This document shows positions 24,182-57,895 of a stretch of DNA of 64,000 bases, piece by piece. The stretch is taken from positions 1 to 64,000 of IMG/VR virus record IMGVR_UViG_3300044982_000128, one strand, 5' to 3'. The DNA comes from a virus. How positions within the stretch are numbered: the stretch's first letter is position 1; every line of letters begins with the position of its first letter. The translations under genes were made by a program, and so were the position numbers. The notes under the pieces are model-generated. The model was not told where the DNA came from, did no database searches, and saw nothing but the letters and a program-made list of their open reading frames with translations.

Positions 24182-24363
24182 CGCAACCTCGGACTCTCTT
24201 TGCAGTACGGCATCAGCCGCAGACACGGACTCGGCTTGGCCTGCGCCGTCAGAAGCTCTTTCTCTTCCTGCTGGCTCAGGGCGGTGATGTGCTGGACGTC
24301 CTGCGGGCGGAATGCCTGGCAGAAGCTACAGCGGGGGAAGGTCTTTGCGATCACTTGTTCCAT
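24178..24363 (-). CDS. Small Cys-containing protein
   Basis: A 61-residue protein starting at the ATG (MEQVIAKTF) that overlaps the end of the upstream HAD-like gene by 13 bases; an ATG at 24399 is the alternative. CSFCQAF and CLRLMPYC could form a zinc site. No function recognised. Confidence 0.5.
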   Translation of the reverse strand: MEQVIAKTFPRCSFCQAFRPQDVQHITALSQQEEKELLTAQAKPSPCLRLMPYCKESPRLR

Positions 24364-24743
24364 GGCTTGAAGTTCCTCAGCAAATCTATCGCTGGCCATT
24401 GCCCATCAAACAGCAGGCAGCGGTCATCGATTGAAACGAATGCGGGTGGTTTTTCTTTCGGAAACGACAAGTGCAGCGGCGTGTCCTCTGGCGGCTTGTT
24501 CCCCCGAGAGCGCCACAGTTTTCTCTGCTCGATAAACCACCAAGTCATTGCCTCAACACCGCCGTCTTGATGACTACGCGAGGAGAAAATCTGCACATCG
24601 AAGTGCTCCTTAGCCGCTTCAAGGAACTCGAATAGGCCGGGGACGTATTCATCAGGAATGACTGCGGCCCCCTTCCATCCGCTCGTGTACTGATGGCACA
24701 CACCGTCAAAATCTAGACATAGAATCGGCTTACTATCGGGCAT
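24351..24743 (-). CDS. HAD-like phosphatase/nucleotidase
   Basis: A 130-residue haloacid dehalogenase-type hydrolase. Motif I is LCLDFDGVCH (nucleophile Asp near residue 9), motif II is FSSRS (near 55), and a late SIDDR supplies the acidic motif IV; FPKEKPP may give the Lys. Compact cap-less HADs of this size in phages act as nucleotidases or polynucleotide phosphatases. AGAGG lies upstream of the ATG. The substrate is not deducible. Confidence 0.75.
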   Translation of the reverse strand: MPDSKPILCLDFDGVCHQYTSGWKGAAVIPDEYVPGLFEFLEAAKEHFDVQIFSSRSHQDGGVEAMTWWFIEQRKLWRSRGNKPPEDTPLHLSFPKEKPPAFVSIDDRCLLFDGQWPAIDLLRNFKPWNK

Positions 24744-24957
24744 GTTGTTTTTCCTCTGCTTGCCCGGCCTGCAAATTGATCTGTCCATAGGGCCGGAGCA
24801 CGAGCTTCGTCGGGCTGATATCGACCACAGAAAAATCTGTGTCTTTGATGGTTACCTTCTCGCCGATGGCAAATACCTTCCAGCCTCGCGCGTATGCCCT
24901 CAGCAAGTCCTCATCGTTTGCGGCAGGTTCAAATCTGTTAGTTTCTGGGTTCATCAT
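24733..24957 (-). CDS. Small unknown protein
   Basis: A 74-residue protein, overlapping its upstream neighbour by 20 bases. GGAGG is nine bases before the ATG at 24957. Contains WKVFAIGEKVTIKDTDFSVV, a beta-barrel-like strand series. Function unknown. Confidence 0.55.
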   Translation of the reverse strand: MMNPETNRFEPAANDEDLLRAYARGWKVFAIGEKVTIKDTDFSVVDISPTKLVLRPYGQINLQAGQAEEKQHAR

Positions 24958-43333: not shown

Positions 43334-43443
43334 GTAAGACTTACAAGGCCACTTCTCGCGCGAGTAGGGCGCTAACACGTCACTGCCAATATTTCAGACA
43401 GTCCATTGCATAGTCCTTTCCCAAGTGGCCTTGTAAATCTTAC
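43334..43443 (-). promoter_or_regulatory. Long hairpin leader with mini-ORF
   Basis: The arms 43334-43354 and 43423-43443 are inverted copies of 21 bases with one mismatch, separated by 68 bases. They fall in the 5-prime leader of the leftward operon that starts at 43298. Inside is an 8-codon ORF (43406-43380, product MDCLKYWQ) with AAAGGA seven bases before its ATG. No T run follows, so it is not a simple terminator. It may be an attenuator, an RNase III site or an ncRNA. Confidence 0.6.
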
Positions 43444-43450
43444 TGTTTAA

Positions 43451-43479
43451 ATCTTCTTACAATTCCATTTTCTTGTCAA
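43451..43479 (-). promoter_or_regulatory. Candidate promoter for the leader operon
   Basis: TTGACA at 43479-43474, followed by a spacer ending in GGAATTGTAA. The -10 is unclear (GAAGAT or GATTTA). It shares TTGACAAGA..GGAA.TGTAA with the element at 45469-45497. Confidence 0.5.
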
Positions 43480-43488
43480 TACTCTATT

Positions 43489-43517
43489 TTGACAAAAGTC
43501 CACTTTTCCACTATCTT
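43489..43517 (+). promoter_or_regulatory. Strong promoter for a leaderless gene
   Basis: TTGACA (43489-43494), a 17-base spacer and TATCTT (43512-43517). The ATG of the gene lies at 43525, seven bases after the -10, so transcription would start at or next to the start codon. Confidence 0.7.
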
Positions 43518-43524
43518 TCCCACA

Positions 43525-43920
43525 ATGCCCGCATCCGTTCATCCGACTCGCAAACCGGCAAGCGCTAAAGCACAAGCGCGTATCGGCGTGTTGCGAGCTA
43601 GTAAAAAGGATCCTGTTGAGCTGACTTGGGAGCAACAAAAGGTTGCTGACCAGTGGTACTGGAAGTTTTGCCAGCGCTGGGGGAATGACTTGCCAGTGTG
43701 GCGCTGTGCGATTCTTAAGGGAGTAGCTCGGAGATTGGCTGTAAAGCCTGTACCGGTCGGGTTTGGTCGGTCCCTGCTTAATCATCGGGGTGCGAACGCT
43801 CTCGCTCGCCGATGCCGTGCACAAGGCGTACAGCATCCCCGTATCGTTGCAATGCGCCGCGGGCAGGAATGGAAACGGGCAGGACGGTCTAAATTACCCA
43901 CCTGCCAGCTTCCGGTCTAG
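43525..43920 (+). CDS. Basic protein from a leaderless promoter, unknown
   Basis: A 131-residue very basic protein (many Arg/Lys, tryptophans in the first half: WEQQKVADQWYWKFCQRWG). No Shine-Dalgarno is present; the promoter ends seven bases before the ATG. Its end overlaps the opposing gene. Perhaps an early DNA-binding or host-takeover protein; inferred from position only. Confidence 0.6.
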   Translation: MPASVHPTRKPASAKAQARIGVLRASKKDPVELTWEQQKVADQWYWKFCQRWGNDLPVWRCAILKGVARRLAVKPVPVGFGRSLLNHRGANALARRCRAQGVQHPRIVAMRRGQEWKRAGRSKLPTCQLPV

Positions 43921-44149
43921 TGCTCTTTACTCGCCACGGTCTGAACACTTCCCGTCCGTCTACCTTTTCATACTCATCGGATGCATAACCGTTGCGTTTC
44001 ATCCACGGGTAAAGTTCCGCAAGGCTAGGAAAAGCTGGCGAAATTGAACGCTCTTTTCCGTTTTCATATTGACTGAGAAACGTTGCGGTATCGCCTGTTT
44101 CAGGTACGGTGCACTGGACCTTAATGTAAAATTCGCCATTTTGCTTCAT
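43889..44149 (-). CDS. Unknown small protein
   Basis: An 86-residue protein, MKQNGEFYIKVQCTVPETGD and ELYPWMKRNGYASDEYEKVD. The pattern suggests a small alpha/beta domain. Overlaps the convergent plus-strand gene by 32 bases. Confidence 0.6.
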   Translation of the reverse strand: MKQNGEFYIKVQCTVPETGDTATFLSQYENGKERSISPAFPSLAELYPWMKRNGYASDEYEKVDGREVFRPWRVKSTRPEAGRWVI

Positions 44150-48740: not shown

Positions 48741-49150
48741 TGCAGCGGCGCAAGTCTGACGCATGGACACCGTCGCTGCAAACGGTTCTCGGACCTAAAC
48801 CGAGTGGTGGAGGGACGGTCACCACGATGCCCCCAAGTTAAGCATGTCAACGCTGTAGGGAAGTGATTTCGGACGCGGGTTCGATTCCCGCCATGTCCAC
48901 CAACAAGCCCTTGCTGCGCGGGGCGGCTATTGATACGTCAATCCGTGATGCAGAGTTCAAGGGCTTGTTTGTGGGCATGCCAAGGTTTCGACGGAATCAG
49001 CGAACTCCAGTTTCATGCCGGGATTGATGCTCACCGTAACGAGAATCAAACTGCAACTGCGGAACCTTTCGCATTGCCGATGGCTGCCTAAGAAACAACC
49101 ATCCGAGGTTTGGCCGCGTTCCTTGTCAAAGAATACGCGGTAAAGGAAAG
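48741..49150 (+). ncRNA. ssrA: Circularly permuted two-piece tmRNA
   Basis: Acceptor piece first: 48741-48902, ending GCGGGTTCGATTCCCGC (T arm, 48875-48891) and ACCA (48899-48902). Coding piece second: about 48973-49150, with the tmRNA hallmark AAGGTTTCGACGG (48982-48994). GGGCATG (48973-48979) pairs with CATGTCC (48892-48898), one G-U, making the acceptor stem. A second helix joins CAGCG (48998-49002) to CGCTG (48851-48855) and CATGC (49014-49018) to GCATG (48842-48846). H-type pseudoknots are visible in both pieces. The tag frame is GAG at 49041 to TAA at 49089-49091 (ENQTATAEPFALPMAA). Between the pieces, 48903-48913 and 48958-48968 form an 11-bp stem that should be removed by processing. 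A terminator follows. Confidence 0.9.
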
Positions 49151-49177
49151 GGCTCCAGCTTCGGCTGGGGCCTTTTT
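49151..49177 (+). terminator. Rho-independent terminator after the tmRNA
   Basis: GGCTCCAGC (49151-49159), TTCG loop, GCTGGGGCC (49164-49172), then TTTTT (49173-49177). Confidence 0.9.
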
Positions 49178-49178
49178 G

Positions 49179-49207
49179 TTGACAATACATTCCAATCGTG
49201 ACATGAT
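49179..49207 (+). promoter_or_regulatory. Promoter for a leaderless HTH gene
   Basis: TTGACA (49179-49184), a 17-base spacer and CATGAT (49202-49207). The ATG of the HTH gene follows six bases later, so the transcript probably has no leader. Same architecture as the promoter at 43489-43517. Confidence 0.7.
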
Positions 49208-49213
49208 TAATCC

Positions 49214-49825
49214 ATGACCCGCGATCCCATCCCCCCGCTTCCACCTCAAATCCTTTCTACACAATCTCTGCTCGCCGCGCGCGATCTGCTTTCTCCGGCT
49301 GACTTCCGCCTGCGCCTGCGCAAGACCCTGCTGGCCAACCCGAATCTGACTCTGCTCCAGGTGGCGCGGGAACTCAAAGTCACCCGGCAGTGCGTCGGCG
49401 CCATCGTCGGCCGCCTGAACCGTTCCACCGGCAAACCCGCGATCAAGCGAGAGCAAGCCAAGGCCAAGATGGCCGAGCTGCGCGCCATGGTAGCCGCCGG
49501 CGAGTCCGCGGAGCATGCAGCGAAGGAACTGGGGATCAGTCTGGGCCAGGCGATGACGCTGGGCTTTCGATCAAAGGCTGTGCGAGCGGTCCACGGAACG
49601 CAGGCGCGATCGGCCGCCGGGTGCGGTTGCTGGCGTTGTCGACGCGCGGCAGGTATTGCTGTTCCACGTGGAACAAAGATGGATTCGCGAGCGAAGGCTG
49701 AGGTTCTCGACCTTTTGGCCTACGTGGACCCGGATTCGGGAGAAGGTTTGAGCCAGAGACGAATCGGCGAGATGGTCGGTGCAGGGCAGGCTGCGATTTC
49801 GAGGATTGCGAGGGCAGCGGAATGA
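49214..49825 (+). CDS. Multi-HTH DNA-binding protein
   Basis: A 203-residue protein with three helix-turn-helix motifs: LLQVARELKVTRQCVGAIVG (near 48-67), AEHAAKELGISLGQAMTLGF (near 98-117) and LSQRRIGEMVGAGQAAISRI (near 178-197), plus a short CGCWRC loop near 136. Looks like a DNA-binding regulator or a terminase small subunit relative. No Shine-Dalgarno; leaderless promoter. First gene of a new transcription unit right after the tmRNA terminator. Confidence 0.75.
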   Translation: MTRDPIPPLPPQILSTQSLLAARDLLSPADFRLRLRKTLLANPNLTLLQVARELKVTRQCVGAIVGRLNRSTGKPAIKREQAKAKMAELRAMVAAGESAEHAAKELGISLGQAMTLGFRSKAVRAVHGTQARSAAGCGCWRCRRAAGIAVPRGTKMDSRAKAEVLDLLAYVDPDSGEGLSQRRIGEMVGAGQAAISRIARAAE

Positions 49826-52694: not shown

Positions 52695-53032
52695 GCCCGC
52701 GCCCTCGACTTCTGAAGACGCAGTGGGATCAAGACTCAATCAGGGTCGAGGTGAAAGCTGCCGGCGTCGTCGATGAGCCGGAAAATCAGAAAGTCATGGA
52801 AGCATGCCTCGGCGAACTCAACGAAGTCAGAATGAGAGTTATGGTAGGCTCATACGGCCCCGGCACGGAGGACAAGGGGAAGGCCCGCTACTACTGGCTC
52901 TTGGGAGAGTCCGCGTCTGTGCACTGTCGCGATCTGGAAACCGCCGATTGGTTTAGAGAAGAATTGCTAAAGTGGCTGAAGTCTCTTGACGGGATAAAAC
53001 TGGAACGGGTCGAGGACGAGGCGGCGCAATGA
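52691..53032 (+). CDS. Unknown small protein
   Basis: A 113-residue protein; ATGA overlaps at both ends. EELLKWLKSLDGIKLERVED near the end. No family recognised. Confidence 0.65.
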   Translation: MSPRPRLLKTQWDQDSIRVEVKAAGVVDEPENQKVMEACLGELNEVRMRVMVGSYGPGTEDKGKARYYWLLGESASVHCRDLETADWFREELLKWLKSLDGIKLERVEDEAAQ

Positions 53033-53583
53033 TCCGTACAATACGCCCCTGGCAAATATTCGAGCGGCTTCAGGAGAACGAGATTCGCCTGCTTATTCCG
53101 ACGCGCCGAAGTTCCGAGACCCGTTCGGTAATGATGCTTGAAACCGCTCTCCTTGTTGCAGTCGCGCGCAAGGCGCGCGTTCAGACCATTCTTGAAATCG
53201 GAACGTCCCACGGATACACCACGCTTCATCTTGCACGCAACACCGACGCCCGGATCACCACGGTGGATGTAGTCGAGCCCGGCGTCCGGGTATATAGGGG
53301 CGAACCCGAGGAGTCGCGGATCACGGAACTTTGCCAGGACTCGAAGACCATTTCGATTCGCAATTACGAGATGGTGTTTATTGACGGGGACCATTCTATC
53401 GAAGGTGTGCGCGAAGATACGAAACTCGTTTTCCAATGTTCCCCCCTGGTAATCGCGTGGCATGATTATGGAAATCCCATCGAGCCTGAAGTTAAGCCGT
53501 ATCTCGATAAAGTCAGTGAGGCGTATGAGCTTTACCACGTCGAGGATTCGTGGCTTTGCTTTTGGTTCAGGGAGGGATTGTGA
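53029..53583 (+). CDS. Class I SAM-dependent methyltransferase
   Basis: A 184-residue protein with ILEIGTSHGYTTLHLA (SAM-binding motif I, near residue 55) and VFIDGDHSIEGVREDT (near 116), the Methyltransf-24 pattern. Small-molecule or sugar methylation is likelier than nucleic acid. GTGA overlap with the glycosyltransferase gene: the two probably act together on a glycan or a modified base. Confidence 0.85.
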   Translation: MIRTIRPWQIFERLQENEIRLLIPTRRSSETRSVMMLETALLVAVARKARVQTILEIGTSHGYTTLHLARNTDARITTVDVVEPGVRVYRGEPEESRITELCQDSKTISIRNYEMVFIDGDHSIEGVREDTKLVFQCSPLVIAWHDYGNPIEPEVKPYLDKVSEAYELYHVEDSWLCFWFREGL

Positions 53584-54173
53584 CCGCTCCCGTCTGTATC
53601 TTCATCGTCTCGGCATTCAATCGGCCGACGGAGTTGAAACTCTGTCTGTTGTCTCTCGTACTTCAATCGAGAACTGACTGGCTTGCAATTGTCACGGACA
53701 ATGCCAACTCGTCGACATACCGGGATCTGAACGAAGAGGCCGTCAGATGGGTCGGGGACGATCGAATCCAGTATCACTACACTGGCGACCGTGCGAACAA
53801 TTGCTACTCCTCGGCTGAGATCGGGGCTTCGATGGTCGCCGGCGGATGGTTGATTTTTCCGAGTGATGACAGCTACTATTGCCCGGAATGCCTCGAAAGA
53901 ATGCTGGAAGTCGAACAGGATGCCGATTGCATTTTCTGTGATGTTTTGTATGATCGCAGGCTCGCTGGCCGTCGCGCAGTTCTCTCGACGGAGCCTCGTG
54001 AGGGGGCGATAGACAAGACCTGCTTCGCGGTTCGTCGTGACAAATTCATTGGATTTCCGGATCAGCCTGCGGACGGCCGCTCGTCTCCTGCTGACGGTAA
54101 GGCAGTCGAGCGGATGGTTGCGATGGGGTATCGGATGAGGCACGTTGCGGAGGTTTTGTGCGTGCACAATTGA
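53580..54173 (+). CDS. Family 2-like glycosyltransferase
   Basis: A 197-residue enzyme. VSAFNRPTELKLCLLSLVLQ (residues 9-28) and WLIFPSDDSYY (DD near 94) form the GT-A nucleotide-sugar and metal site. It is shorter than most GT2 enzymes. GTG start overlapping the methyltransferase stop. Role: transfer of a sugar to a surface polymer, protein or DNA base; not decidable. Confidence 0.8.
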   Translation: MTAPVCIFIVSAFNRPTELKLCLLSLVLQSRTDWLAIVTDNANSSTYRDLNEEAVRWVGDDRIQYHYTGDRANNCYSSAEIGASMVAGGWLIFPSDDSYYCPECLERMLEVEQDADCIFCDVLYDRRLAGRRAVLSTEPREGAIDKTCFAVRRDKFIGFPDQPADGRSSPADGKAVERMVAMGYRMRHVAEVLCVHN

Positions 54174-54175
54174 GC

Positions 54176-54238
54176 TATAATGGGGGAACCGAGAGTGTCA
54201 CCTCTCGGCTCATGTCTCATCGATCTGGAGGATCGACT
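54176..54238 (+). promoter_or_regulatory. TATAAT leader with Shine-Dalgarno hairpin, copy 1
   Basis: TATAAT (54176-54181), then hairpin 1 CCGAGAG-TGTCAC-CTCTCGG (54189-54208) and hairpin 2 TCGATC-TGGAG-GATCGA (54220-54236), the GGAG placed in the loop, two bases before the ATG at 54239. No -35 match. Layout and loop are shared with 63054-63117. Confidence 0.75.
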
Positions 54239-54904
54239 ATGACCACCCCAAAGAAAACTCTACCACGAGATTTGACCGGCATGGTGTTTGGTCGGTTGAC
54301 TGTAATTGAACTAGACCACCACAACGAGCGTGGGGTGAGCTATTGGAAGTGCCAATGCGAATGTGGCATCACAATCGTGACAAGTAAGTATTCTCTTCTT
54401 CGCGGATACACGCAAAGTTGCGGTTGTATTCGCAGTGAGCAGGCCAGACAACGGCGCTTGAAGCATGGTATGGCCACTATGGGGGCACATGGATGGGTAA
54501 GTCGAACCTATCGTATATGGATGGCCATGCGCACTCGTTGTACAAATTCTAAAGTTCCTCATTACCACAATTACGGTGGTCGGGGGATCAGTATTTGTTC
54601 TGAGTGGAACGATTTTGCCGTCTTTTTGCGCGATATGGGTGAGTGTCCTGTTGGTATGTCCATCGATCGATTTCCAAATAACGATGGAAATTATGAACCA
54701 GGGAATTGCCGGTGGGCTACTCGATTAGAACAACGTCTCAACCAGCGCAAACGTACACATTGTCCGCAGGGGCATCCTTACGTTTCTGGTGACATAGATT
54801 ATCGAGGCAGGCAGTTTTGTAGGCCTTGCAAAAACGCTCATGAGCAACGGCAGCGTGCTCGGCGTAAGCAAAAACAGTTGGAGGCCAAAAATGCCTGCAT
54901 TTAA
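54239..54904 (+). CDS. HNH-family endonuclease with C-terminal zinc domain
   Basis: A 221-residue protein. N-terminal zinc region (CQCECGITIV, CGCIRSEQ), the nuclease core RTRCTNSKVPHYHNYGGRGI (near 97-116) and SIDRFPNNDGNYEPGNCRWA, then a C-terminal HCPQGHP...CRPCKN zinc domain. This core is a phage homing-type HNH fold. It is expressed from its own hairpin leader, while the flanking genes are glycosyltransferases; it overlaps the following gene by 14 bases. Confidence 0.82.
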   Translation: MTTPKKTLPRDLTGMVFGRLTVIELDHHNERGVSYWKCQCECGITIVTSKYSLLRGYTQSCGCIRSEQARQRRLKHGMATMGAHGWVSRTYRIWMAMRTRCTNSKVPHYHNYGGRGISICSEWNDFAVFLRDMGECPVGMSIDRFPNNDGNYEPGNCRWATRLEQRLNQRKRTHCPQGHPYVSGDIDYRGRQFCRPCKNAHEQRQRARRKQKQLEAKNACI

Positions 54905-55742
54905 GCTTGTGATTGCAGTTCTTACTGCGCATCATCCGTCGCGTTGGCACCGCCGCCAAGTCGCTAAGCAGAATTTCCTTAAGGACTGTCCGATCCCGTA
55001 CAAATTTGTTTTTGGAGATGCGGTACGCGTGGGGGATTGGGATTACACCGGTCTACGTGACGAGGAGATTTTGCACGCGCCTGGTTCTGATGCTAAGGAT
55101 CATTTGCCGTTGAAGAACCAGGCTGCGTTTCGGTGGGCTTTGGAGCAGGGCGCCGACGCGATTATCCGTGTGATGGACGATACCTGGCTAAATGTGGATC
55201 GCATGCTCAAGGCCGGTTTGGAGCAATTCGATTTGGCCGGAGCGTTTCCGATGAAGTTCAAGTTGGGAGGAACTTTCAGCGTACCATGGCTGCGGATGGG
55301 GTATCCGCACGGAGGCTGCGGAATCTGGCTTTCGCGTAAATCAATGGAGATGTTGGTAGCTGATGTTTGGGATCCAGACTATCTTAAGTCTTGGCCTGAG
55401 CGAATGGATGTGGGGTGGGGCATAACTTATCCAACTCCGAAAATTTTTTGGGACGACCATTGGGTTGGCGAGGTGCTGCAGGGAAATTTAGCTTACGACG
55501 ATCCTTTACGCAGCCAACCGTGGGCTGCGTATACGGCTAACGGTATTTCTGTTTTTGAGGATGAATTCTTGTTTTATAACGATGAGATTGAGCGGCCTCT
55601 TACTGTCCATGATCCGGGGGTTCACAAAATTCAGTCCAGAGATATGGATGACGTGATTGAGCAAGCGAGGCAAAGAAATCTTGTGGCGAATGTACTAAGA
55701 AATCCTTTGAATGTAATCGATGCGGAGCCTACCAATGCCTGA
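54891..55742 (+). CDS. GT31-like glycosyltransferase
   Basis: A 283-residue enzyme. LVIAVLTAHHPSRWHRRQVA opens it; RVMDDTWLNV (near 94-103) holds the DxD-type metal motif, YPHGGCGIWLSRKSMEML and DDHWVGEVL (near 188) follow, as in beta-1,3-glycosyltransferases. Overlaps the HNH gene. With the family-2-like enzyme and methyltransferase it forms a glycan-modification set. Confidence 0.78.
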   Translation: MPAFKLVIAVLTAHHPSRWHRRQVAKQNFLKDCPIPYKFVFGDAVRVGDWDYTGLRDEEILHAPGSDAKDHLPLKNQAAFRWALEQGADAIIRVMDDTWLNVDRMLKAGLEQFDLAGAFPMKFKLGGTFSVPWLRMGYPHGGCGIWLSRKSMEMLVADVWDPDYLKSWPERMDVGWGITYPTPKIFWDDHWVGEVLQGNLAYDDPLRSQPWAAYTANGISVFEDEFLFYNDEIERPLTVHDPGVHKIQSRDMDDVIEQARQRNLVANVLRNPLNVIDAEPTNA

Positions 55743-56250
55743 TTTCAATCTTTTTCAAAGAGTCGGCGATTTCTTTGAAATGCGCAAGACCTACAGACAA
55801 CAAGCTCTCAAGGCCCTCCGCAAACGTGAAGGTCTTCCGTCCCCTGTCGATCAAGATGGCGTCCCACTCGAAACTCGTTTCGACGATCAGGGCAACGCGC
55901 ACTATTACAACGCATCCGGCGAGAAGCAGGAGCATGTCCTCTTCGCTGGTGCAGGCAAGGACGGCAAGCCCGGATCGTTCGCTGTCGGCACACGCAAGCA
56001 GGAGCCGCGCGAGCTGGCCGATGCATCCTGGCACTCCGAGTCTGAGTTCCAAATCCTCGACGTCGCAGAAGACGGACGCAAGCTCTCTGATGAGTTGAAA
56101 GACCTCGACCGCGACTCTAGTACGTTTGAACGATCCGAAAAAGTTTCCCACGGTGATGCAGGCGAGCAGGCACCGGAGTTGCATCTGGCGAATACGAGTG
56201 ACGAAGAGATCGACGAGACGCTGCAGAAGTTTTTGAAGCGGGGGTTGTGA
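55735..56250 (+). CDS. Unknown acidic protein
   Basis: A 171-residue protein starting at MPDFNLFQRVGDFFEMRKTY. Eight-base overlap with the glycosyltransferase gene. The N-terminal third is basic and helical, the rest acidic and probably disordered. No family recognised. Confidence 0.65.
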   Translation: MPDFNLFQRVGDFFEMRKTYRQQALKALRKREGLPSPVDQDGVPLETRFDDQGNAHYYNASGEKQEHVLFAGAGKDGKPGSFAVGTRKQEPRELADASWHSESEFQILDVAEDGRKLSDELKDLDRDSSTFERSEKVSHGDAGEQAPELHLANTSDEEIDETLQKFLKRGL

Positions 56251-56711
56251 TGGGTTGCTTGGAAGACGATATCGATTACGCGTTGCGCGTTCAACGAGGT
56301 GAGATCAAGTTGCCTCCGCCACGGCCAAAGATTGTTTGCCTCTGTGGGTCCACGCGATTTCGCGATCAGTTCATGCAAGCGAACTATCGTGAGACGTTGA
56401 AGGGGAATATTGTTTTGAGTGTAGGCTTTTACGTTCATGTTGCAGATGAATGCCCGAACTGCGATGCGTCGCAGAGCTTCGCGAAAGAACAAAACGCTGA
56501 AGGTCCGCAGGGAAAATGCTGGTGTTGCGGTGCAGATCTCGGTTGTACTCCGGAGCAGAAGATTGCTTTGGATGAATTGCACAAGCGCAAGATCGATCTT
56601 GCCGACGAAGTGTTTGTGCTGAACGTCGGTGGATATATTGGTCAGAGCACGCACAGTGAAATTGAGTACGCTATCGCGCATAGAAAACCCGTGCGGTATT
56701 TGGAGTCGTAG
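56250..56711 (+). CDS. Nucleoside 2-deoxyribosyltransferase-like protein with zinc loop
   Basis: A 153-residue protein with the Rossmann-like start IVCLCGSTRFRDQF (near 28-41) and KRKIDLADEVFVLNVGGYIG, HSEIEYAIAHRKPVRY at the end, which match nucleoside 2-deoxyribosyltransferase folds. A Cys-rich insert CPNCDAS...CWCCG (near 68-94) looks like a zinc loop, unusual for the family. Starts by TGATG overlap (GTG at 56247 is the alternative). Possible role in nucleotide or base modification. Confidence 0.75.
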   Translation: MGCLEDDIDYALRVQRGEIKLPPPRPKIVCLCGSTRFRDQFMQANYRETLKGNIVLSVGFYVHVADECPNCDASQSFAKEQNAEGPQGKCWCCGADLGCTPEQKIALDELHKRKIDLADEVFVLNVGGYIGQSTHSEIEYAIAHRKPVRYLES

Positions 56712-56715
56712 AACG

Positions 56716-57024
56716 ATGGGCCACAGCACTTCCAAGCCGTACAGTAAGTGGAGTGATTCAGGCCGTGTGCTCTTTTTTCAGCATCGCTGGAGCAATTTGG
56801 ATCGTTTTTCTTTAGCGCTCGAGCGTATGTGGGAAGAACAGGAACGCATCCGTGCAGCGGATATGATGGCGAATCGTTTTGTGACTGAGTATTGGCCTCA
56901 GATTGAAGTGGCTGTGTTGCCGCCGATCGATGGGTTCAGTACTTGGGATGTGATTAGGCACAGATCGAAGCAGCGGGATAAGTGGGTAAGTCTTTTGCAG
57001 GAATTCTGGAGGGAGAGAGTCTGA
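56716..57024 (+). CDS. Unknown small protein
   Basis: A 102-residue protein with helix RFSLALERMWEEQERIRAAD and Trp-rich strands. No family recognised. TGATG overlap with the next gene. Confidence 0.6.
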   Translation: MGHSTSKPYSKWSDSGRVLFFQHRWSNLDRFSLALERMWEEQERIRAADMMANRFVTEYWPQIEVAVLPPIDGFSTWDVIRHRSKQRDKWVSLLQEFWRERV

Positions 57025-57248
57025 TGGCTGACCTTTTCATCTGTCCTGATTGCGAACAGGCCACAGCGACTCAGCCTGATTCCCTCTGCGCGACTTGTCA
57101 GCAGTGGCGCGATCAGCGTTTGGACGAGATGGATTCCGAATATGAGGACCGCCTGGCAAGGCAAGCTCGCCGACGCATGAAGCCGAGCGAGAGATTCGCT
57201 GAAGATTTGTCGGATATGGTGAAGGCCGTGGAACGGAGCAGACGATGA
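57024..57248 (+). CDS. Small zinc-binding protein
   Basis: A 74-residue protein with FICPDCEQ and LCATCQQ in the first third, then a charged helix. ATGA overlap with the HNH gene. Role unknown. Confidence 0.65.
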   Translation: MADLFICPDCEQATATQPDSLCATCQQWRDQRLDEMDSEYEDRLARQARRRMKPSERFAEDLSDMVKAVERSRR

Positions 57249-57895
57249 ATAGGAAGCCAACCGCATACGAATATCTAGTCTCAATCGTCACTAAGGTCAA
57301 CACGAATGTCTGTATAGTATGGCCGTTCCATATTGATAAAGGCGGGTATGGGCGTATTATGGCGCCAAAAATCTTTGGTGAAAGACAGCAGTTTCTTGTG
57401 CACAGATTAGCGTATAGGGTTGCGTACGGTAAGTGGCCTACTCCAAACGGGCTTCACAGTTGTGACAATCGTGCGTGTTTCAACCCCCGTCATATTTCCC
57501 CTGGAACTCTCAGGGAAAATACTGAGGATATGGTTGCCAAGGACAGGCAGGCTAAGGGGGAGAGAACTGCTCTTTCCAAATTGACATATGAGTTGGTGGA
57601 ACAGGCACGAAGGGAATATATTGGCGGCCTGACTTGTGAGCAATTAGCCACTCGATATGGCGTGAGTGGTCATACCATGAACACGGCAATTTCCGGAAAG
57701 ACTTGGAAGCATGTTCCCAATCCGGTTAGAATGCGTCCTCGTCACAGACCTCCCGCCACGCACTGTTCGTACGGTCATCCGCTTACTGAGGGGAATTTTT
57801 ATACGATACGTCGGCGGCGCGGGGTTACATGCAGGGAATGCAAGATTTGCTCCAGTAATAAATATAAAATTCGTAAGTTGAAACGAGGTAAGTAG
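57245..57895 (+). CDS. HNH endonuclease (HNH_3 type)
   Basis: A 216-residue protein. FLVHRLAYRVAYGKWPTPNG (near 50-69) and HSCDNRACFNPRHIS (near 73-87) are the HNH-3 core. It is followed by an HTH (CEQLATRYGVSGHTMNTAIS) and a C-terminal CSYGHP...CRECKIC zinc domain like that of the other HNH gene. Four-base overlaps at both ends (ATGA, TAGTG). Homing-type nuclease. Confidence 0.85.
   Translation: MNRKPTAYEYLVSIVTKVNTNVCIVWPFHIDKGGYGRIMAPKIFGERQQFLVHRLAYRVAYGKWPTPNGLHSCDNRACFNPRHISPGTLRENTEDMVAKDRQAKGERTALSKLTYELVEQARREYIGGLTCEQLATRYGVSGHTMNTAISGKTWKHVPNPVRMRPRHRPPATHCSYGHPLTEGNFYTIRRRRGVTCRECKICSSNKYKIRKLKRGK

What the first reader, a model, noticed from the sequence alone, without database searches (positions are those of the whole stretch)
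48741..49150. Phage-encoded, circularly permuted two-piece tmRNA
The acceptor half with a T arm and CCA end comes first, the coding half with AAGGTTTCGACGG comes second. GGGCATG of the coding half pairs with CATGTCC of the acceptor half, and a second helix (CAGCG/CGCTG plus CATGC/GCATG) also joins the halves. Permuted tmRNAs are known from alphaproteobacteria, some cyanobacteria and betaproteobacteria; I know of none established in a phage. It may rescue ribosomes under phage conditions or replace a host tmRNA.
Basis: partly seen in the sequence, partly recalled or inferred. Interest (0 to 1): 0.92.

Follow-up and report, generated by a model that had tools for sequence, protein, structure and literature searches.

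The report
Permuted two-piece tmRNA in soil phage
This virus of bacteria carries its own split version of the RNA that frees stuck ribosomes; such genes were already known in phages, but this one belongs to a group of related genes found here in many otherwise unrelated viruses.

Summary
Confirmed. ARAGORN and Rfam RF04321 (94 bits, cut-off 47) both call a circularly permuted tmRNA at 48810-49182, tag ATAEPFALPMAA. It lies inside a 76.8-kb phage genome whose 127-bp ends repeat, so it is not host DNA at a contig edge. Two near relatives keep both neighbouring genes but lack the tmRNA: it is a clean 396-bp insertion between the upstream gene and an existing terminator. The novelty premise is wrong: two-piece tmRNAs in phages were reported in 2022 (53 of 133 phage tmRNAs, PMC9004378). 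Its nearest relatives are permuted tmRNAs in 17 other viral contigs, mostly phages with no detectable protein kinship, sharing an exact 21-base pseudoknot segment; several tags end ALPMAA/ALQMAA. In 30 distinct phage permuted tmRNAs the acceptor stem pairs 7/7 with compensatory changes, and tags change mostly synonymously. It most likely rescues stalled ribosomes during infection using host SmpB (none found in the phage). Host, transcription and processing are untested. Most novel point: a sequence signature of these phage genes was found in no credible permuted gene among 84,980 prokaryote genomes.

The parts
48747..49142 (+). 396-bp block present here and absent from the empty site of relative G004/L058; it holds the permuted tmRNA gene
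   Evidence: pairwise alignment; left flank 21/23 identical, right flank is the terminator/promoter region
48747..48902 (+). acceptor (tRNA-like 3') fragment with 5' extension; exact 5' end unknown
   Evidence: conserved GGTGGAGG...GCCCC motif in relatives; boundary inferred
48842..48846 (+). P2a 3' strand GCATG, pairs with CATGC 49014-49018
   Evidence: 9/9 genes paired, compensatory changes at pairs 3 and 4
48853..48858 (+). P2b 3' strand CTGTAG, pairs with CTCCAG 49005-49010 (one mismatch here)
   Evidence: 52 of 54 cells paired across 9 genes
48875..48891 (+). T arm GCGGG TTCGATT CCCGC, canonical
   Evidence: differs from alphaproteobacterial permuted tmRNAs, GGGGGCGGTACCC
48892..48902 (+). 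acceptor stem 3' strand CATGTCC and ACCA end
48903..48972 (+). 70-nt intervening segment, predicted hairpin ACAAGCCCUUG/CAAGGGCUUGU; expected to be removed
   Evidence: z -2.9; linker length in relatives 3-154 nt
48973..48992 (+). coding fragment 5' end, GGGCATGCCAAGGTTTCGAC (acceptor 5' strand and D-like region)
49017..49048 (+). PK1-like region; first 21 bases GCCGGGATTGATGCTCACCGT identical in 17 other viral contigs
49053..49091 (+). tag reading frame ATAEPFALPMAA and TAA stop
   Evidence: several tags of related phages end ALPMAA/ALQMAA
49114..49148 (+). possible pseudoknot after the tag: CCGCGT/ACGCGG with loop TTCCTT against AAGGAA
   Evidence: sequence inspection; CCGCGU/ACGCGG stem in fold; pseudoknot inferred
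49151..49177 (+). intrinsic terminator already present in tmRNA-less relative L058
48128..48733 (+). upstream phage gene (201 aa, unknown) conserved next to the empty site
49214..49825 (+). downstream helix-turn-helix gene (203 aa), conserved in relatives

Best explanation
A complete circularly permuted tmRNA gene, acquired by this phage as a roughly 400-bp unit from a pool of permuted tmRNAs that circulates among soil phages. It is transcribed with the upstream gene and ended by the phage's existing terminator (inferred). Host RNases remove the 70-nt hairpin linker to give an acceptor piece ending in CCA and a coding piece starting GGGCAUG, held together by the acceptor stem and P2 (inferred). 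It is charged with alanine (the G3.U70 pair is present), binds host SmpB, frees ribosomes stalled on damaged or cleaved mRNA during infection and adds the tag ATAEPFALPMAA (inferred).
For: Two independent callers. Inside a phage genome with a 127-bp terminal repeat and phage genes all round. Clean insertion against empty sites in relatives. Relatives in 17 other viral contigs with an exact shared 21-mer. Acceptor stem 30/30 fully paired with 2-4 pair types at positions 4-6. P2 compensatory changes. Tag frames of phage permuted tmRNAs: 61 synonymous to 37 non-synonymous pairwise differences where about 25% synonymous is expected (pairs not independent). No SmpB found in the phage, control positive.
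Against: No RNA data. P2b has one mismatch here. Only one copy of this exact gene, so selection on this copy itself is not shown. None of the phage's near relatives whose records were searched carries a match, so it is dispensable for the group.
Confidence: 0.75

Rival explanations
1. The gene is a piece of host ssrA picked up through integration at the host tmRNA (attP remnant or imprecise excision).
For: tmRNA genes are common integration sites; PMC9004378 and PMC12656738 discuss this route.
Against: Complete gene, not a 3' fragment; no integrase among about 70 ORFs scanned; nearest relatives found are all in phages; the signature is in no credible permuted gene of 84,980 prokaryote genomes.
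Confidence: 0.08
2. A decoy or inhibitor of host trans-translation that titrates SmpB, as proposed for the tRNA-like-domain-only tmRNA of mycobacteriophage DS6A.
For: A short tRNA-like RNA has been shown to inhibit tmRNA (PMC4131195, PMC11915505).
Against: Here the tag frame and PK1 are intact and tags in related phages are under protein-level constraint; a decoy needs neither.
Confidence: 0.1
3. A tmRNA whose main purpose is altered tagging: rescue with a tag that changes the fate of phage or host proteins.
For: Tags differ widely between phages; several phage tags end ...ALV...SLV or ...LATA rather than AA.
Against: This tag ends in MAA, so it may be a normal degradation tag.
Confidence: 0.15
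4. Non-functional passenger or decaying gene.
For: Patchy occurrence among near relatives; one mismatch in P2b.
Against: All 7 acceptor pairs, T arm, P2a, PK1, tag and stop intact; RF04321 score twice the cut-off.
Confidence: 0.07

Closest known systems
Rfam RF04321 tmRNA_permuted
   Same: Layout, tRNA-like domain, tag and stop; 94 bits against cut-off 47
   Different: 70-nt linker is longer than the model's; phage-borne
Rfam RF01850 beta_tmRNA
   Same: The only one of the lineage models reported for this stretch (lower-scoring overlapping matches of the clan were left out); canonical T arm
   Different: 63 bits, below its cut-off of 84; different D-like region (CCAAGG instead of UACUGG) and PK1
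Two-piece tmRNAs of Melnitz and other phages (PMC9004378)
   Same: Phage-borne two-piece tmRNA
   Different: Reported as almost all marine or aquatic and, for Melnitz, alphaproteobacterial in affinity and with a glutamine riboswitch; this one groups away from alphaproteobacterial genes. No riboswitch match at this locus
Permuted tmRNAs of Stenotrophomonas phages Bhz51/Mendera and DLP6 and Xanthomonas phage XacN1
   Same: Permuted, GCCNAGGTTTCGAC start, phage-borne
   Different: Score over the RF01850 cut-off; different PK1 and tags
Permuted tmRNA of Tunturiibacter phage Tunturi_4 (unannotated in the record)
   Same: Permuted, in a soil phage
   Different: 33-aa tag; beside an RF-1-domain gene; different PK1

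Membership tests
Circularly permuted tmRNA (RF04321) | Covariance score above the gathering cut-off | tested here: met
   94 vs 47 bits
Circularly permuted tmRNA (RF04321) | Acceptor half before coding half, joined by acceptor stem with G3.U70 | tested here: met
Circularly permuted tmRNA (RF04321) | P2 helix joining the halves | tested here: met
   P2a 5/5 and P2b 5/6 here; covariation in relatives
Circularly permuted tmRNA (RF04321) | Tag frame with stop | tested here: met
   ATAEPFALPMAA*
Circularly permuted tmRNA (RF04321) | Processing into two mature RNAs | not testable with these tools
   needs RNA from infected cells
Betaproteobacterial tmRNA (RF01850) | Score above cut-off 84 | tested here: not met
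   63.3 bits; not filed here
Alphaproteobacterial-type permuted tmRNA | T arm of the GGGGGCGGTACCC kind | tested here: not met
   this gene has GGGTTCGATTCCC; tree separates it from the alpha clade
Phage-encoded gene (not host DNA) | Lies inside a complete phage genome | tested here: met
   127-bp terminal repeat, phage genes on both sides, conserved neighbours
Self-contained trans-translation system | SmpB partner encoded by the phage | tested here: not met
   none in the phage at E <= 1, controls positive; host SmpB would be needed, so the phage does not carry a full system

The most novel reading that the evidence does not exclude
Phages own lineages of permuted tmRNA that circulate between unrelated phages and are assembled from exchangeable modules (acceptor stem, PK1, tag), independently of whether their hosts have one-piece or permuted tmRNA. 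If so, phages are a reservoir, possibly an evolutionary source, of the permuted form.
Probability: 0.4. Interest if true: 0.68.

Novelty: new member of a known kind. Interest (0 to 1): 0.45.

Why it matters
Phage permuted tmRNAs were reported as largely marine and explained by capture from hosts or temperate phages. The group here has no detected permuted counterpart in prokaryote genomes and shows module exchange between phages (L094 and L095 share acceptor and tag but differ in PK1; L265 and L266 share the coding half but differ in acceptor stem). That makes testable why phages keep their own ribosome-rescue RNA and where the split form came from.

Tried and rejected
A too-specific viral pattern found nothing. 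Host identification: tblastn of primase, terminase and capsid against annotated phages gave only distant hits; a search for the PK1 segment with up to 2 mismatches in 396 Acidobacteriota genomes found none; blast of two carrier contigs gave no isolate relative. Cyanobacterial search for RF04321 returned nothing in 79 genomes; its recall is doubtful because only few candidates per genome are scored, so no weight is put on it. ARAGORN permuted calls in L152 and L155 were rejected because they overlap clear one-piece genes. Mechanisms demoted: attP remnant, pseudogene, SmpB decoy. The three acidobacterial RF04321 matches were not accepted as permuted: two are one-piece by ARAGORN (L205, L206) and L207 had no call.

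Full report
What is there. ARAGORN calls a permuted tmRNA at 48810-49182 with tag ATAEPFALPMAA and Rfam RF04321 matches 48842-49091 end to end at 94 bits (cut-off 47).

Nine phage genes (this one and eight relatives) give a test of the P2 helices. GCATG/CATGC pairs in 9/9 with compensatory changes.

Phage context. The record is an IMG/VR virus of 76,838 bases whose last 127 bases repeat its first 127, consistent with a complete genome. Primase, polymerase, helicase, terminase (with an intein), major head protein, a weak portal-like match, endolysin and tail-fibre matches were found, and no integrase among the ORFs scanned. Relatives G004 and G020 keep both neighbouring genes but not the tmRNA. 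Against L058 the extra block is 48747-49142, 396 bp, ending just before the intrinsic terminator that L058 also has. Searched records of relatives gave no RF04321 match, though many are fragments. Gain in this lineage is the simplest reading; loss elsewhere is not excluded.

Known already? Yes in kind. PMC9004378 reports the two-piece tmRNA of phage Melnitz and 53 two-piece among 133 unique phage tmRNAs, 50 of them from marine or aquatic samples; the tmRNA database holds 79 phage sequences (PMC11915505).

Relatives. The start signature GGGNNTGCCNAGGTTTCGAC occurs in 55 IMG/VR contigs; ARAGORN calls a permuted tmRNA in 50. In 84,980 prokaryote genomes it occurs in 72 stretches: 37 carry a one-piece tmRNA call, mainly Desulfuromonadales and Bacteriovoracaceae, and none is a credible permuted gene. 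The 21-base PK1 segment of this gene is exact in 17 other viral contigs; ARAGORN of them permuted, and the other three (L078, L264, L270) are cut near a contig or locus end but show the same coding-half start. Some of their tags end ALPMAA or ALQMAA like this one. Among the carriers compared with this phage at protein level, only L267 and L270 shared a protein match outside the tmRNA, one each. Some carriers (for example L264, L269) match other members of the wider relative set better, so not all are unrelated. That the carriers are soil phages is inferred from shared IMG/VR dataset numbers with this phage's relatives and from the Tunturi paper, not looked up.

Module exchange. L094 and L095 have the same tag (one substitution) and acceptor half but different PK1; L265 and L266 have the same coding half after the acceptor stem but different acceptor stems and linkers. 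This suggests recombination inside tmRNA genes between phages.

Selection. In 30 distinct phage permuted tmRNAs, 30 have all seven acceptor pairs; shuffling partners gives mean 9.8, maximum 18. Pairwise tag comparisons give 61 synonymous and 37 non-synonymous single changes where about a quarter synonymous is expected; pairs are not independent.

Affinity. Alphaproteobacterial permuted genes and the single gammaproteobacterial one found have T arms of the GGGGGCGGTACCC kind, unlike the phage genes. A tree on about 140 sites places this gene with L094, L095 and members of L260-L272 (support 94), then with L122, L125, L079 and L108 (96), away from the alpha clade and in a wider group with the beta consensus and other phages. 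The alignment is short, the one-piece genes in it were chosen because they carry the signature, and true beta genes are represented only by the Rfam consensus, so deep branches should not be trusted. In Acidobacteriota no permuted gene was confirmed in 119 genomes, while acidobacterial phage Tunturi_4 carries one, so at least that phage gene is unlikely to come from its host.

How it works. Most likely ordinary trans-translation in the host: transcription through the upstream gene, removal of the hairpin linker, alanine charging, host SmpB (none in the phage). Every step after gene identity is inferred. The host is unknown.

Noticed in passing
L070 (Tunturiibacter phage Tunturi_4, PP885687.1 about 43,400-44,000): Unannotated permuted tmRNA with a 33-aa tag, just downstream of an RF-1-domain release-factor gene; two possible ribosome-rescue factors side by side. 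The paper (PMC11924767) lists only one tRNA of unknown type.
   Followed up: partly
L074, L076, L081-L084, L096-L098, L112, L119, L126 and others: Many phage permuted tmRNA tags end in ALV, SLV, LATA, LATV or LVTA instead of the usual AA, which might change proteolysis of tagged proteins.
   Followed up: no
G000 63612-66506 (starts in the window; L002:3612-6506): Terminase large subunit carries an intein with a LAGLIDADG-like domain; most relatives lack it.
   Followed up: partly
L094 and L095: Near-identical tmRNAs whose PK1 pseudoknot has been swapped; L095 has the PK1 of the window's gene.
   Followed up: partly
L272, linker between tmRNA halves: Linker is 120 nt and contains an inverted duplicate of part of itself compared with the 65-nt linker of L266.
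   Followed up: no
G360 contigs C22 and C110 (L244, L245): One alphaproteobacterial genome carries two permuted tmRNAs with different tags (ANDNYAPVAQAA and ANDNVALNEVRLAA).
   Followed up: no
window 24351-24788 (-): Phosphoheptose-isomerase-like gene, a possible host-metabolism gene.
   Followed up: no
window 53029-57895: Two HNH endonuclease genes and a methyltransferase-like fragment in one region.
   Followed up: no
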